64,000 nucleotides of DNA, from the NCBI GenBank assembly GCA_017994935.1, contig JAGOJU010000010.1, positions 19,119 through 83,118 of the forward strand. The letters run 5' to 3'. Positions within the stretch are counted from its first letter, which is position 1; each line of letters begins with the position of its first letter. This DNA is from Opitutaceae bacterium. Its GTDB lineage: Bacteria; Verrucomicrobiota; Verrucomicrobiia; Opitutales; Opitutaceae. The translations under genes and the position numbers were made by a program. The notes under the pieces were generated by a model. The model saw nothing but the letters and a program-made list of their open reading frames with translations, searched no databases and was not told the origin of the DNA. Shown here in pieces: positions 4,781 to 36,107 of this stretch.

Positions 4781-6058
4781 ATGACGCTGCCCGCTCCAGT
4801 CCTCTTTGTTCCGGGGATCATGGGAAGCACCCTTCGCGACGAGTATCCGGTTGATCCGGAGAACGTGTGGTCGGTCCTGAAGGCTGCGACAAAAAACTAT
4901 GATCGCATCACGTTGCATCCGGACGATGTCAGGTACGAGCTGGTCGAACCGGCCCGCGTGGCACGCGATCAGGTATTCCAGCTTTTTTACGGCGAGATCA
5001 TAGAGGAACTGCGCCACAACCTTACGCAGGACCCCGCAAGTCCCGTGCCGGTGTATCCGTTTGCCTATGACTGGAGGCAGCCCCTGGACATCATCGAAGG
5101 CGAGCTTGCCGCCTTTGTCGGCGAGGTCATTGCGAGAACCAGCCTGATGCGGCACTATCATGCTGATGGATTCTCTACCAGGACGGGAAAGGTGAATATC
5201 GTCGCGCACTCGATGGGTGGGCTGATAACCGCGGGGTATCTGGCGCGTGCGGGATTCAAATCGGTCGACAGGGTGGCGTCGCTGGCGTCGCCCTTCCGCG
5301 GTTCGCTCGAGTCGATCGCAAAGGTGGCGATCGGCGTCGGTGGCTTCAGTCTATCCGGCGGTGGCTCCCGCGAGCGCGAGGCGGCGCGGCTGACGCCTTC
5401 GCTCTATCATTTATTGCCGTCCTACGATGAGGCGGTCACGGCGGAGGGTGGCCTGACTGAGGACATCTTCCTTCCTGAGGCATGGCAGCCGGGCATCCTT
5501 GAAACGCTGGCAACATTTGTCACCCGGTATGGATTGCGGCCCGATGACCCGCGCATGAAGGCTGACCGATTGCTGGCGGCCATGCTTGATCGTGCCTGGC
5601 GGCACCGTCGTCGCCTGGAGCGCTTGAAACTGCCCGATCCGCGCCGATGGCTTTGTGTGGTTGGAGTCGATGCGGAAACGCGCGTGAGCATGGCGATCAG
5701 GCCGGATGGGGGTGGAAAACCCCGGTTTGAGCTCGAGGACCCGAGGAACGAGTGGGGTGGCATCAATCGCCTGAATACAGGCGACAACACCGTACCGTAC
5801 CTTGGTGCCAGGTGTGCGTTTGTTCCCGTGGAGCAGGTGGTGTGTGTGACTCCGGGCGATTTCGGATTTTTTGAATTCGGCGACCAGTTGCTGGCCAAAC
5901 TCGGATTCCACAGCGCGCTGCCCAGCATGAATCTGGTGCAGAGGCTGGTGACGTCGCATCTCCTGGGGCGCCCCCAGGGAAAGCTGGGAGGGCGTCCGCC
6001 GCCGGAGATAGATCCTGCGGATTGGGATCCGCCCATCAGCGAGCTCCTGCCCAGGTAA
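4781..6058 (+). CDS. LCAT-like alpha/beta hydrolase (putative lipase/acyltransferase)
   Basis: The 425-residue protein begins with VLFVPGIMGSTL, the oxyanion strand-turn of lecithin:cholesterol acyltransferase-like (PF02450) enzymes, and has the nucleophile elbow AHSMGG with S144. Other family marks are FAYDWRQ (about 94-100) and GDNTVPYLGA, whose Asp is the likely acid; a C-terminal His (for example in TSHLLG) would complete the triad. No signal peptide is seen, so it is probably cytoplasmic. Known relatives hydrolyse or transfer acyl chains of phospholipids; the true substrate here is not known. It is followed at 125 bases by the four-helix-bundle gene. Confidence 0.82.
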   Translation: MTLPAPVLFVPGIMGSTLRDEYPVDPENVWSVLKAATKNYDRITLHPDDVRYELVEPARVARDQVFQLFYGEIIEELRHNLTQDPASPVPVYPFAYDWRQPLDIIEGELAAFVGEVIARTSLMRHYHADGFSTRTGKVNIVAHSMGGLITAGYLARAGFKSVDRVASLASPFRGSLESIAKVAIGVGGFSLSGGGSREREAARLTPSLYHLLPSYDEAVTAEGGLTEDIFLPEAWQPGILETLATFVTRYGLRPDDPRMKADRLLAAMLDRAWRHRRRLERLKLPDPRRWLCVVGVDAETRVSMAIRPDGGGKPRFELEDPRNEWGGINRLNTGDNTVPYLGARCAFVPVEQVVCVTPGDFGFFEFGDQLLAKLGFHSALPSMNLVQRLVTSHLLGRPQGKLGGRPPPEIDPADWDPPISELLPR

Positions 6059-7032: not shown

Positions 7033-9312
7033 TCAGGCGCCTGCCGGCGACGACTCGAGCCAGTTTCGAAAATCCCTGAGCTGGTCGAGAGATCCCAGGC
7101 CGAGAAGGCGGTCGCCGGGTTGGAGGACCTCGGAGGCCTGTGGGACGAGGATCTGGGAGCCGTTGCGTCCGATGCCCAGAACGCGGACGCCCGTCTTCCT
7201 TGCAATCTGAAGTTTTCCAAGCGGCACACCTGTGGGGCCACTTTCGGGAACGGTGAACGAATCGAGAACGGCTCGATCGAAGTCGCCGTGATGTTGCCTG
7301 TCCTCACCCTGCCCTGCGAGGAATGCCGATGCCTTCTCGATCTGCGATGGAATGCCCAGCAGCAGAAGCTTGTCGCCAGGAAAGCAGGAGAGGTCTGGCG
7401 AAGGATGGGGGATCACGAAGTTGTTGCGTTCGATCTCGACCACAAAGCAGCCGAACCGGGAGGGAATCTGGAGTTCGGAGAGGGAGCTTCCCGCATAGCT
7501 GGCTCCGGCGGGAACGGTGCAGTCGTGCAACTGGAGGTCCCAGGCCTCGAGTCCCTGGGCGAGTGATTCCCTGTCCGTCCCGCCTTCAGCACTGGATGGG
7601 GATCCATTCCCTTCAAGCACCTTGTTCATCGAGTGCTGCCAGGTGCTGTGCCAGTAGATGAGTTTTCGGGAGAACACCGTCACGATTGCGATGGCCGCGA
7701 TTCCCAGGAAGAGCCAGCCGAGCGGGCTCAGTTTCACTGGAAACAAGGCATAGAGGAAGGAACCGAGCGCCACTGCAGCGGCAGTGCGCAGGCTCGTCCG
7801 GATGAACCGTGGCGTCAGCGTAGGCATGTGCCAGGCTTCGGCGACGATTGCCGCGAGGGCACCGATGTTCCTCCAGGCTGCAAACAGCGGGATCAGCACG
7901 AGCAGGCCGATGCCGATCCAATAGGCGATCCGAAGGGGAGTGATGCCCAGCATCGAGGCGAGCATGGTCTCTTCGAGACGCAGCAGGAGGGGTTGAGAGA
8001 AAATGAGGACGCCGGCCACGAAAAGGATTTCGACGGCGACCTGCACGAGACGGCTGCGAATCAGTTTCCATGCGAGCGGAGCCGTGTCGCGGTTGGCGAC
8101 GTGATGAAGCCAGCTTTGATAGGCGGCGATGAACCGGGAAACCGGAGCTGGCTCGATGACATCAAGGAAGTGCAGGATGGGGCCGGCAAAACGGTTGAGA
8201 ATCGGTGTGGCGAGCACGGTGAGAACCGAAAGCCCGACGGAGAGCGGATAGAAAGAGACCGGAAGGACGGCCGCTGCGATGCCTGCCTGCGCGATGATGA
8301 ATGTGAACTCTCCGAGGGGAGTGAGCAGGAGTCCGCCGCGCCGCGCCTGGGGTGGTGGCACCCCCACCAGCATGAGTGCGATGCCGCATGCGATTGGGCG
8401 CACGAGGAGCGAGAATAGGCTGAGCGTAAGGACAGGCAGCCAGATCTCCTTCAGCAGGCGCACATCGATCATCATGCCGATCGATACAAAAAAGACGCTG
8501 CCGAAAAGATTGCGGAGGCTGCCGAAAGATTCCTCGATCGTCTGCTTTTGCGGCATCTCCGCCATCAACGCTCCAAACAGGAATGCGCCGAGCGCGATGG
8601 AATAGCCCGCCTTGATGGCCGCGAGCGAGAGCAGGAAGAGCACGCCCGCCACCACGAGCGTCTGCAGTTCCGTATCAGCCTTCTTCTCAAGCCAGCGCAG
8701 AAGACGCGGCAGCAGGAGCAACCCAAGACAAACAAAGAGTACGACAAAGGCCGTGAGTCCGGTGAGCACGGCTCCCAGGCCCGCTGACTTGTGGGCCCCC
8801 TGGGTGGCGAGCACCGTCAGCATGATGACGGCCACGACGTCCTCGACGATCGTGATGGCAAGGGCCATCTGGGCGGCGCGATCGTGGTTGAGCTTCAGCT
8901 CACTCATGATTTTTGCGATCACCGCCGAGCTCGACACCATCAGCATGGCGGCGACGAACAGGCTGTGGAGGGGCGTCCATTCCAGCACCCGCCCCAGCAG
9001 CAGGGTGAACGCGAGCATGAAAAAGGCGCCGATGAAGGTCGCCATGATGATGGGCAGCCCCATGCGCCGCAGTTTCGACAGGCTCAGTTCCAGTCCGATG
9101 GAGAACATGAGGAAGACCAGCCCCACCTGAGACAACTGCGCGATGTGATCGGTGTCCTGTATCAGCGAAAACGGCAGGTAGGGCCCGATCGCAATCCCGG
9201 CCAGGAGGTAGCCGACGATGACAGACAGCCCGATACGCTTGCACAGCATGCCTGCAAGGCCTGCAGCGAGCAGCAGGATGACAAAATCGTGAACGAGCGT
9301 GAAATGGTCCAT
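7033..9312 (-). CDS. CPA2-family cation:proton antiporter with two RCK_C (TrkA-C) domains
   Basis: Residues 1-390 form the Na/H-exchanger-type membrane core (about 12 hydrophobic segments, with FSIGLELSLSKLR and the glycine-rich HDRAAQMALAITIVEDVVAV stretch typical of KefB/KefC relatives). Two to four further membrane segments follow (about 415-560). The cytoplasmic tail holds two tandem RCK_C domains (roughly 580-665 and 675-755). There is no Rossmann TrkA-N domain, so unlike KefB/C it should not be NAD/glutathione gated through that fold. RCK_C domains of related antiporters are known ligand sensors, including for c-di-AMP in CpaA. Likely a K+ or Na+/H+ antiporter of the inner membrane; ion specificity is not readable. 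The 87-base gap to the convergent upstream gene holds only a weak hairpin. Confidence 0.88.
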   Translation of the reverse strand: MDHFTLVHDFVILLLAAGLAGMLCKRIGLSVIVGYLLAGIAIGPYLPFSLIQDTDHIAQLSQVGLVFLMFSIGLELSLSKLRRMGLPIIMATFIGAFFMLAFTLLLGRVLEWTPLHSLFVAAMLMVSSSAVIAKIMSELKLNHDRAAQMALAITIVEDVVAVIMLTVLATQGAHKSAGLGAVLTGLTAFVVLFVCLGLLLLPRLLRWLEKKADTELQTLVVAGVLFLLSLAAIKAGYSIALGAFLFGALMAEMPQKQTIEESFGSLRNLFGSVFFVSIGMMIDVRLLKEIWLPVLTLSLFSLLVRPIACGIALMLVGVPPPQARRGGLLLTPLGEFTFIIAQAGIAAAVLPVSFYPLSVGLSVLTVLATPILNRFAGPILHFLDVIEPAPVSRFIAAYQSWLHHVANRDTAPLAWKLIRSRLVQVAVEILFVAGVLIFSQPLLLRLEETMLASMLGITPLRIAYWIGIGLLVLIPLFAAWRNIGALAAIVAEAWHMPTLTPRFIRTSLRTAAAVALGSFLYALFPVKLSPLGWLFLGIAAIAIVTVFSRKLIYWHSTWQHSMNKVLEGNGSPSSAEGGTDRESLAQGLEAWDLQLHDCTVPAGASYAGSSLSELQIPSRFGCFVVEIERNNFVIPHPSPDLSCFPGDKLLLLGIPSQIEKASAFLAGQGEDRQHHGDFDRAVLDSFTVPESGPTGVPLGKLQIARKTGVRVLGIGRNGSQILVPQASEVLQPGDRLLGLGSLDQLRDFRNWLESSPAGA

Positions 9313-34242: not shown

Positions 34243-34635
34243 ATGACACCCGCCGTTGTCGACACCTCCGCAGACTACCTGCCGATCCTCGTGCAGGTAT
34301 TGCTCGCAGCCGGACTGGCTGGAGCGATAGTCGGGATCAGCCAGCTCCTTGGACAGCGCTCCGCGAAAAACGCGATCAAGGACTCCGCGTACGAATGCGG
34401 TGTGAAGCCGGAAGGCATCACGCATGCACGCTTTGCGGTGAAGTTCTACGTCACCGCGATGCTGTTCATCATATTCGATATTGAAGTGGTCTTCCTGATA
34501 CCCTGGACGTTCATCTATCGGGAATTTCTCTCCCATCAGATCGCCATACTCGGTCCAATCTCCTTCTTCCTGTTCGTTCTGGTCCTGGGACTTTTCTACG
34601 AAGTGAAGAATGGGGCATTGGAATGGGAAAGATAA
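34243..34635 (+). CDS. nuoA: NADH-quinone oxidoreductase subunit A
   Basis: Membrane subunit of respiratory complex I. The 130 residues contain three membrane helices and the invariant NuoA loop: SAYECGVKPEG, then ARFAVKFYVTAMLFIIFDIEVVFLIPW. Length and motif spacing are normal. It stands alone: the downstream gene is a PTS-cyclase fusion and no nuoB, C or D is in the window, so complex I genes must be dispersed or this is a second copy. The gap before it contains GC-rich sequence but no clear promoter. Confidence 0.96.
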   Translation: MTPAVVDTSADYLPILVQVLLAAGLAGAIVGISQLLGQRSAKNAIKDSAYECGVKPEGITHARFAVKFYVTAMLFIIFDIEVVFLIPWTFIYREFLSHQIAILGPISFFLFVLVLGLFYEVKNGALEWER

Positions 34636-34751: not shown

Positions 34752-36107
34752 ATGCGCCTCGACAAGATCATTGCACGCAGCCGCCTCGTTGAGCTGAAGA
34801 GCTCGGACCTGAAGGGTGCCCTCGAGGAGCTCCTGGCCGTGTCGGTCGCAAAATTCCCCGACCTCAAACCCGAACTCCTGTTGCGGAGCCTGCTGCAGCG
34901 CGAGGGCACCATGACGACCTACCTCGGCAACGGCGTTTCCCTGCCGCATGCGCGGGTCAAGATGGCGCGTCCGTACGTGCTTGCGGTGGGGCGCAGCAAG
35001 GTGGGGATCCGGCATGATGGAGGCGCCAGCGATGAACGCATCCATTTCATCCTGATGCTGATCGCGGGGGAGAAGGCCCGCAGCTATCTGCCGGTGCTGG
35101 CGTCGCTCGCCCGTCTCTTCAAGGAACCCGAATTCATCGACAGCCTCCTGATCGCGCCCGATCTCAACGACCTCTACACGAAGCTGATCGCGGGCCTTGG
35201 TGGCATTGCGGGGCGCCCCGTCCAGGCGCAGCAGAACCGTGTCAATCGCCTGATGCTGCGTGAGGCGGAACGTATCGCCAAGGGGGCGGGCTGCGGTGCA
35301 CTGATGGTGTTTGGAGACACCTTTGTCGGCGGCATCGAGGTTGGCATGCTCCAGCCGAAGCTGAAGACCATACTGGTCACCCGGAATCCGATCGAGGTGG
35401 GGGACGACCATTCGAGTTTCGCCGAGACGATCCAGGTGCGTTCGTTCTCCAAGGCCCGTCTCGCGCAGTTGCGCAGCGCGATGCTCGTCGGGCTGACCCA
35501 TGGCATCATTTCCTTCAATGACCGAGTCTGCTGCATCGGCGGCATCACGGGGAGCAACCAGTTCGACACGCTGGTGGTAGTCGATGTCGAGCGCGAGTTC
35601 CAGACCCTGCTGACCGGCCATGCGGAACTTCTGCCGCCGGATGTCAGGCCGGAGGTGCTCGAGCGCGTCATCGCGGTGGCCACGGAGCTTGCCGTCGAAG
35701 GACGGGAGGGGCGTCCGGTCGGGTGCCTGTTTGTTGTCGGTGACACCGCAAAGGTCGAGAAGCTGGTGAAGCCGCTCGTATTGAATCCGTTTTATGGATA
35801 CAAGGAGGAGGATCGCAACATCCTGAATCCGTTCATGGATGAGACGATCAAGGAGTTTTCGCTGCTCGACGGGGCGTTCATCATCCGCGGGGATGGCGTG
35901 GTCCTGTCCGCAGGCAGCCTCCTGCAGGCCACGGATTCCGAACATGCGCTACCCAGCGGCCTCGGAAGCCGGCACGCAGCCGCGGCAGCCATTAGTGTGG
36001 CGAGCGACTGCATTTCGATCGTCGTTTCCTCGAGCACCGGGCAGGTGAATCTATTCCGGCGAGGGGTGATGCTGCCGTTGACGGAGCGCAAGATTGCCCC
36101 GGGTTAG
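34752..36107 (+). CDS. PTS EIIA domain fused to a diadenylate cyclase (DAC) domain
   Basis: The 451-residue protein joins a fructose/mannitol-type PTS EIIA domain (1-150; GNGVSLPHARVK with the candidate phospho-histidine H66) to a middle alpha/beta region (160-365) and a C-terminal DisA_N-type cyclase domain (370-445). The cyclase motifs are DGAFII (D373-G374-A375) and GSRHAAAAA (S406-R407-H408), with the strand SIVVSSSTGQVNLF after. DAC domains condense two ATP into c-di-AMP. The third residue of the usual RHR motif is Ala409. The middle region recalls the pyruvate-kinase-C-like part of archaeal DacZ proteins. There is no membrane segment or DNA-binding domain. Phosphorylation of H66 may tune the cyclase; no EI or HPr gene is nearby. 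Confidence 0.85.
   Translation: MRLDKIIARSRLVELKSSDLKGALEELLAVSVAKFPDLKPELLLRSLLQREGTMTTYLGNGVSLPHARVKMARPYVLAVGRSKVGIRHDGGASDERIHFILMLIAGEKARSYLPVLASLARLFKEPEFIDSLLIAPDLNDLYTKLIAGLGGIAGRPVQAQQNRVNRLMLREAERIAKGAGCGALMVFGDTFVGGIEVGMLQPKLKTILVTRNPIEVGDDHSSFAETIQVRSFSKARLAQLRSAMLVGLTHGIISFNDRVCCIGGITGSNQFDTLVVVDVEREFQTLLTGHAELLPPDVRPEVLERVIAVATELAVEGREGRPVGCLFVVGDTAKVEKLVKPLVLNPFYGYKEEDRNILNPFMDETIKEFSLLDGAFIIRGDGVVLSAGSLLQATDSEHALPSGLGSRHAAAAAISVASDCISIVVSSSTGQVNLFRRGVMLPLTERKIAPG

What the first reader, a model, noticed from the sequence alone, without database searches (positions are those of the whole stretch)
34752..36107. PTS EIIA domain fused to a diadenylate cyclase, with Ala in place of the third RHR residue
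The sequence shows a phospho-histidine motif (SLPHAR, H66) and, at the C terminus, the DGA (373-375) and RH (407-408) motifs of DAC domains in one chain. Known c-di-AMP synthases (DisA, CdaA, CdaS, DacZ) carry DNA-scanning, membrane or pyruvate-kinase-like partners, not EIIA. The fusion suggests that sugar or nitrogen PTS phosphorylation state controls c-di-AMP. Ala409 replaces the Arg found in DisA/CdaA, so activity or metal use may differ.
Basis: partly seen in the sequence, partly recalled or inferred. Interest (0 to 1): 0.8.

Follow-up and report, generated by a model that had tools for sequence, protein, structure and literature searches.

The report
PTS phosphate switch fused to c-di-AMP cyclase
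This Verrucomicrobiota gene joins a PTS phosphate-acceptor domain, a pyruvate-kinase-like domain and a diadenylate cyclase domain in one protein, so the cell's PEP-driven phosphate relay likely tunes its predicted production of the messenger c-di-AMP; the domain combination is already in databases, but my paper searches found no test of this control.

Summary
The 451-aa ORF (34752-36107, +) scores above the curated cut-offs for PTS_EIIA_2, DacZ_P and DAC, in that order. Predicted folds match PtsN, the pyruvate kinase C-terminal domain and DAC enzymes.

It is not a one-off: 37 of 37 sampled family genomes have it, 68 of 78 DAC-bearing genomes of the order do, and so do Spirochaetia and Chitinispirillaceae records. 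JGI names already state the fusion; Braun 2019 lists Opitutia proteins as class 'DacD'. Ala409 is ordinary for this branch.

New, indirect support for PTS control: EI, HPr and HPr kinase are in the same genome. On the tree, 6 of 9 losses of His66 or of the EIIA domain fall on EI-less branches holding about a fifth of the length (p 0.002-0.003); EIIA deletions were seen only there. Limits: three losses arose with EI present, and several EI-less lineages keep the His.

Best reading: a DacZ-type c-di-AMP synthase likely tuned by EIIA phosphorylation, the unphosphorylated state probably active. Activity and direction are untested.

The parts
34752..36107 (+). EIIA-DacZ_P-DAC fusion gene, 451 aa
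   Evidence: full-length relatives in 37 of 37 family genomes
34797..35180 (+). PTS_EIIA_2 domain, residues 16-143
34899..34901 (+). Arg50, aligned with the conserved Arg of PtsN and IIA-mannitol; the EIIA site with the strongest excess of losses in EI-less lineages
   Evidence: its role at the phosphorylation site is recalled, not tested
34947..34949 (+). His66, predicted phospho-acceptor (PHAR motif)
   Evidence: aligned with the His of PtsN and IIA-mannitol; identical in 120 of 120 close homologs
35235..35606 (+). DacZ_P domain, residues 162-285, predicted pyruvate-kinase C-terminal fold
35691..36068 (+). DAC (diadenylate cyclase) domain, residues 314-439
35868..35876 (+). DGA motif, residues 373-375
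   Evidence: D373 and G374 invariant in 67 of 67
35970..35978 (+). RHA, residues 407-409 (RHR in CdaA and DisA)
   Evidence: R407 and H408 invariant in 67 of 67, third residue variable
34243..34635 (+). nuoA-like gene (Oxidored_q4) directly upstream, possible operon partner
   Evidence: PF00507; same-strand neighbour in 78 of 80 named loci and 35 of 48 order loci
7033..9312 (-). Na_H_Exchanger antiporter with two TrkA_C (RCK_C) stretches; candidate c-di-AMP target, inferred only
   Evidence: PF00999 and PF02080; found through

Best explanation
The protein carries a PTS EIIA domain, a DacZ_P domain and a diadenylate cyclase domain, and it likely makes c-di-AMP from ATP at a rate tuned by phosphorylation of His66 through the cell's EI-HPr relay. 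Proposed working: PEP charges EI and HPr, and HPr would pass phosphate to His66; the charge state of EIIA would then change how the DacZ_P/DAC core pairs its catalytic sites. Unphosphorylated EIIA is probably permissive and phosphorylation probably lowers or adjusts activity, because lineages without EI keep the DAC motifs and the phosphodiesterase family PgpH. The pyruvate-kinase-like domain would be a second metabolic input, and potassium/osmotic control the likely output. Shown: domains, predicted folds, co-occurring genes, the evolutionary pattern. Inferred: cyclase activity, phosphorylation, its direction, the ligand of DacZ_P.
For: Domains above cut-off and predicted folds. D373, G374, R407, H408 invariant in 67 of 67. 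EI, HPr and HPrK each present once in the own genome. 6 of 9 losses of His66/EIIA on EI-less branches with 18-20% of the length, p 0.0018-0.0033; 6 of 9, p 0.0017, on a longer tree search and 7 of 10, p 0.0015, with FastTree. EIIA deleted in 8 of 43 EI-less and 0 of 80 EI-bearing proteins read. Loss-rate ratio EI-less/EI-bearing: EIIA 2.13, DacZ_P 1.34, DAC 1.28; R50, R68, H66 and P65 are among the five most affected of 30 EIIA sites. DAC and PgpH co-occur in 87 genomes (72 both, 6 neither, Fisher p 1.3e-4). All 12 EI-less genomes of f84 and f96-f99 in that set have PgpH. RF00379 c-di-AMP riboswitches in 12 of 61 family genomes.
Against: No biochemical test. With EI present, His66 is lost in three lineages (f9 Tyr, f3 g27 Ser/Cys/Asn, G569 Asn), and 36 of 120 more distant fusions have Gln, so control by this His is dispensable. 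16 of 43 EI-less proteins keep the His. The test rests on about nine events; for H66 alone, deletions masked, p is 0.02. Conservation of DacZ_P falls as far as that of EIIA in EI-less proteins (0.655 and 0.643, DAC 0.835), so part of the signal may be general decay in reduced genomes. The model's pTM of 0.54 gives no domain arrangement. The own draft genome shows no PgpH and no RF00379.
Confidence: 0.55

Rival explanations
1. An active DacZ-type cyclase whose EIIA domain is mainly a docking or oligomerisation module: its phosphorylation state changes which partner it binds (for example transporters with RCK domains), not the rate of catalysis.
For: In E. coli unphosphorylated PtsN binds TrkA, KdpD and the K+/H+ antiporter YcgO (PMC13104625 and PMC11808508, passages). 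Antiporters with TrkA_C domains are common in the family (54 of 61 genomes have TrkA_C) and lie 5.7-8.5 kb from the cyclase gene in 11 of 25 genomes with both places listed (read by eye).
Against: Being in the same chain, upstream of a PK-like sensor domain, is more simply an input to the enzyme. The antiporter linkage spans housekeeping genes (seen in two genomes) and may be plain synteny.
Confidence: 0.22
2. An active DacZ-type cyclase with a vestigial EIIA domain; the losses in EI-less lineages only reflect relaxed selection in small genomes.
For: DacZ_P conservation falls as far as EIIA in EI-less proteins; His66 is also lost in EI-bearing f9 and f3 g27 and is Gln in 36 of 120 distant fusions.
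Against: His66 is kept in 68 of 80 EI-bearing proteins and 120 of 120 close homologs. EIIA sites show the larger rate excess (2.13 against 1.34 and 1.28) and the lead includes R50, R68, H66 and P65. EIIA deletions were seen only without EI.
Confidence: 0.18
3. The DAC domain is inactive or makes something else, because the RHR Arg and the CdaA Glu124 equivalent are replaced.
For: A409 in place of Arg. The position of CdaA Glu124 appears to be Ser428, Ser in all 360 homologs checked (motif alignment by me).
Against: D373, G374, R407, H408 and S426 are invariant in 67 of 67; Haloferax DacZ, of the related DacZ/CdaZ branch, is reported to form c-di-AMP with manganese (PMC6741144, passages); DAC and PgpH are kept or lost together.
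Confidence: 0.05

Closest known systems
DacZ / CdaZ (DacY) diadenylate cyclases of Euryarchaeota and some bacteria
   Same: DacZ_P/PK_C-like domain followed by a DAC domain (fold); third RHR residue not Arg in the bacterial stand-alone relatives.
   Different: An EIIA domain in front; NCBIfam DacZ equivalog NF041371 reached only 117.1 bits against a cut-off of 430.
DacD class of DAC proteins (as listed in Braun 2019, PMC6741144)
   Same: Listed members are Lacunisphaera limnophila, Coraliomargarita, Puniceicoccaceae and Opitutae proteins, the group in which this fusion is the usual DAC.
   Different: Cannot tell: the definition of the class (2013 review) is not held and the listed entries were not fetched.
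EIIA-Ntr (PtsN) and fructose/mannitol EIIA proteins
   Different: Part of a cyclase; PtsN equivalog TIGR01419 36 bits against 138.7, fruA domain TIGR00848 37.6 against 103.5.
CdaA, CdaS, CdaM, DisA
   Same: DAC fold with DGA and RH motifs.
   Different: Different partner domains (recalled and passages); third RHR residue Ala; their NCBIfam models score 19.8-40.1 bits, under every cut-off.

Membership tests
DAC domain family (PF02457) | Score above the curated cut-off with DGA and RH motifs | tested here: met
   81.4 bits against 27; D373, G374, R407, H408 invariant in 67 of 67
DAC domain family (PF02457) | c-di-AMP synthesis from ATP | not testable with these tools
   needs an enzyme assay
DacZ/CdaZ branch | N-terminal DacZ_P or PK_C-like domain | tested here: met
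DacZ equivalog NF041371 | Score above 430 bits | tested here: not met
   117.1 bits, residues 239-440
DacD class | Attached-domain definition of the 2013 scheme | tested here: inconclusive
   definition not held; listed members come from the same order or close to it
PTS EIIA-2 family (PF00359) | Profile score, fold and phospho-acceptor His | tested here: met
   64.0 bits against 27; fold; H66 aligned with the PtsN His
PtsN equivalog TIGR01419 | Score above 138.7 bits | tested here: not met
   36 bits
PTS-controlled protein | EI and HPr encoded in the same genome | tested here: met
   one PF05524 and one PF00381 match in G000
PTS-controlled protein | Phosphorylation of His66 by HPr | not testable with these tools
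   needs a phosphotransfer assay

The most novel reading that the evidence does not exclude
The PTS phosphate relay directly sets c-di-AMP: an EIIA domain fused to a DacZ core turns the PEP charge of EI and HPr into a c-di-AMP signal that governs potassium, throughout Opitutales and in relatives named Spirochaetia and Chitinispirillaceae. Lineages that lost EI then shed the phosphosite or the whole EIIA domain and run a constitutive cyclase.
Probability: 0.5. Interest if true: 0.78.

Novelty: new member of a known kind. Interest (0 to 1): 0.52.

Why it matters
The signals that adjust c-di-AMP are described as largely unknown (abstract of PMC11323494, listing). A cyclase with a built-in PTS phospho-acceptor offers a directly testable input: the PEP charge of EI and HPr. 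PTS-Ntr (PMC13104625, passages) and c-di-AMP (PMC7900238, abstract) both control potassium, so the fusion would put both regulators in one chain. The EI-less lineages form a natural mutant series (His kept, His replaced, EIIA deleted) around an intact DAC motif set; they predict a default-on cyclase and supply ready-made constructs for biochemistry.

Tried and rejected

Chance ORF or artefact: rejected; full-length relatives in 37 of 37 family genomes. In the larger sample, 76 of 77 family genomes have a strong match; the exception is G631, 99% complete, best E only 1.9e-9, not followed up.

Riboswitch in the window: none at gathering threshold. Promoter/terminator scan around the gene: 0 and 1 found, shuffles 0.6 and 2.3.

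Tip count of His66 against EI (68 of 80 against 16 of 43, Fisher p 1.2e-7): not relied on, since rows are related and my choice of loci was enriched for EI-less and f3 families. Independent-pairs test on 74 rows: too few pairs to decide. Replaced by a branch-based test with a per-site control, which is weaker for H66 alone.

Neighbour clustering by all ORFs was swamped by shadow ORFs; replaced by tblastn of window proteins.

Papers: the ten searches listed no paper whose title or shown abstract reports an EIIA-fused diadenylate cyclase; the library lacks most subscription journals. I saw passages only of PMC6741144, PMC6488665, PMC7288161, PMC5575661, PMC13104625 and PMC11808508, and listings of the rest. 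Three reviews that might settle 'DacD' are not held.

Rows dropped before counts: seven paralogs or fragments (L155, L190, L198, L199, L208, L210, L271) and G114; the CdaA-like L112-L114 fell under my score threshold. The tree has 130 rows, 123 of them from the order with an EI status; they come from the 87-genome set, the 30 best A3 matches and 30 chosen handles. 298 of 372 order genomes had an A3 match, so most were not read.

Full report

How common it is. All 120 listed close homologs have the same three domains. In a phylum sample of 387 genomes, 37 of 37 of the same family have a full-length match; of nine loci outside the order whose DAC part matched and which I read, six (G004, G035, G159, G247, G318, G383) have EIIA and DAC in one ORF. 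In a larger sample of the family 76 of 77 genomes have a strong match. In the order, 78 of 87 genomes have a DAC; 68 of those 78 have this fusion with a detectable EIIA part, the others lacking EIIA (5), having a decayed one (1), being cut by a contig end (2) or showing only another DAC (2). With the outlier G004 as query, 120 fusions were listed; where a name is given it is Spirochaetia, Spirochaetales, Spirochaetota, Chitinispirillaceae or Chitinivibrionales. Stand-alone DacZ relatives are named Smithella and kin. JGI product names spell out the fusion. Braun 2019 (PMC6741144, passages) lists Opitutia and related proteins as class DacD, and says that DACs were classified by attached domains in a 2013 review, which is not held. 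That DacD is this fusion is therefore likely, not shown.

Ala409. In the 67-row alignment R407 and H408 are invariant while the third residue is A 53, S 9, T 2 and V, G, R once each. It is A in 120 of 120 close homologs, I in 120 of 120 stand-alone DacZ, and mixed in the other fusions (A 83 of 120). The Listeria CdaA active-site list in PMC7288161 (passages) names Leu31, Asp71, Thr102, Arg103, His104, Ser122, Glu124 and main-chain contacts, not the third Arg. Ala409 is thus no sign of odd chemistry. The Glu124 position appears to be Ser428, Ser in all 360 homologs checked; a link to metal use would be speculation.

Is the EIIA domain a live PTS input? The own genome has one EI, one HPr and one HPr kinase. 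Of 372 genomes of the order 305 have EI; the reduced-genome families f84, f96, f98 and f99 and part of f97 do not. I scored 123 cyclase proteins of the order. Without EI, the EIIA domain is gone in f96 (4 of 4 read) and in f97 g221 and g245 (4 of 4 scored); His66 is Tyr in 11 of 11 f98 g227, Cys, Leu or Asn in five of six f99, and Tyr or Asn in three of seven f84 g240. It is kept in f84 g201 (4), f98 g216 (2), four of seven g240, G502, G403 and four genomes with sporadic EI absence (G396, G411, G598, G634). With EI, His66 is kept in 68 of 80; the exceptions are f9 (Tyr, 5), f3 g27 (Ser, Cys or Asn, 6) and G569 (Asn). On a tree of the DacZ_P-DAC part, with losses counted as irreversible, 6 of 9 losses fall on EI-less branches that hold 18-20% of the length (p 0.0033; 0.0018 with sporadic EI absences set to unknown). 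A longer tree search gives 6 of 9 (p 0.0017) and FastTree 7 of 10 (p 0.0015). EIIA deletions: 8 of 43 EI-less and 0 of 80 EI-bearing proteins.

Control. Reduced genomes evolve fast, so I repeated the count for each conserved site. Pooled loss rates in EI-less relative to EI-bearing lineages are 2.13 for EIIA, 1.34 for DacZ_P and 1.28 for DAC. Within EIIA, R50 (p 4e-5), D19, R68, H66 (p 0.02, deletions masked) and P65 lead of 30 sites. R50 and H66 align with an Arg and the His of PtsN and IIA-mannitol; that these form the phosphorylation site is recalled. Against this, the mean conservation of DacZ_P sites falls as far as that of EIIA sites in EI-less proteins (0.655 and 0.643; DAC 0.835), and the test rests on about nine events. 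I take it as moderate support for PTS input through EIIA, not proof. In the more distant fusions 80 of 120 have His and 36 have Gln, which again suggests control that is common but dispensable.

Direction. Where EI is gone the protein keeps D373, R407 and H408, and all 12 EI-less genomes of f84 and f96-f99 in the 87-genome set have PgpH. If c-di-AMP turnover still works there, the uncharged or EIIA-free enzyme must be active; hence I propose that unphosphorylated EIIA is permissive. This is inference.

Pathway context. DAC and PgpH (PF07698) are kept or missing together in 87 genomes (both 72, DAC only 6, PgpH only 3, neither 6; Fisher p 1.3e-4, not corrected for relatedness). The own draft (89.9% complete) is one of the six with DAC only. 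RF00379 occurs in 12 of 61 family genomes, not in the own draft, under stricter filters. Of these 12 I scanned the following ORF of nine: K_trans 1, amino acid permease 2, Band_7 3, DEAD helicase 3. TrkA_C, which I recall as a c-di-AMP receptor domain, is in 54 of 61 family genomes; the window carries such an antiporter at 7033-9312. In 11 of 25 family genomes with both places listed it lies 5.7-8.5 kb upstream of the cyclase on the same strand (read by eye); in the two genomes I checked, rpoD, dnaG, DUF362 and nuoA lie between. nuoA is directly upstream of the cyclase in 78 of 80 named loci and 35 of 48 order loci.

Verdict. What this work adds is indirect evolutionary evidence that the EIIA domain is a working PTS input to a predicted c-di-AMP synthase, with a set of natural variants for testing it.

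Noticed in passing
window 34243-34635 and 34752-36107: A single nuoA-like gene sits 116 bp upstream of the cyclase gene; the pair is conserved (78 of 80 named loci, 35 of 48 order loci). Whether the rest of complex I is elsewhere was not looked at.
   Followed up: partly
window 7033-9312 (-): Na_H_Exchanger antiporter with two TrkA_C stretches in the same window; in 11 of 25 relatives it lies close to the cyclase gene.
   Followed up: partly
L112, L113, L114 (G430, G440, G409; family f85): A second, higher-scoring DAC (402-438 aa frames, 108-112 bits) without EIIA or DacZ_P signal, perhaps CdaA-like.
   Followed up: no
L198, L199, L210 (G430, G419, G172): A separate 300-322 aa DacZ-like paralog with DGG in place of DGA on a long branch; in G419 it is the only DAC found.
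   Followed up: no
genomes G102 and G298 (family f3, genus g22), both 99% complete: Both DAC and PgpH are missing while EI is present: apparent loss of c-di-AMP turnover as a unit.
   Followed up: partly
L253 genome G525, contig C43:2412-3734: Beside the intact cyclase gene a second, stop-riddled copy lies on another contig. Described only.
   Followed up: no
L277-L286 and two further places: RF00379 riboswitches precede potassium transporter, amino acid permease, Band_7 or DEAD-helicase genes in Opitutaceae.
   Followed up: partly
window 4781-6058 (+): LCAT-like alpha/beta hydrolase next to the tRNA-Pro gene.
   Followed up: no
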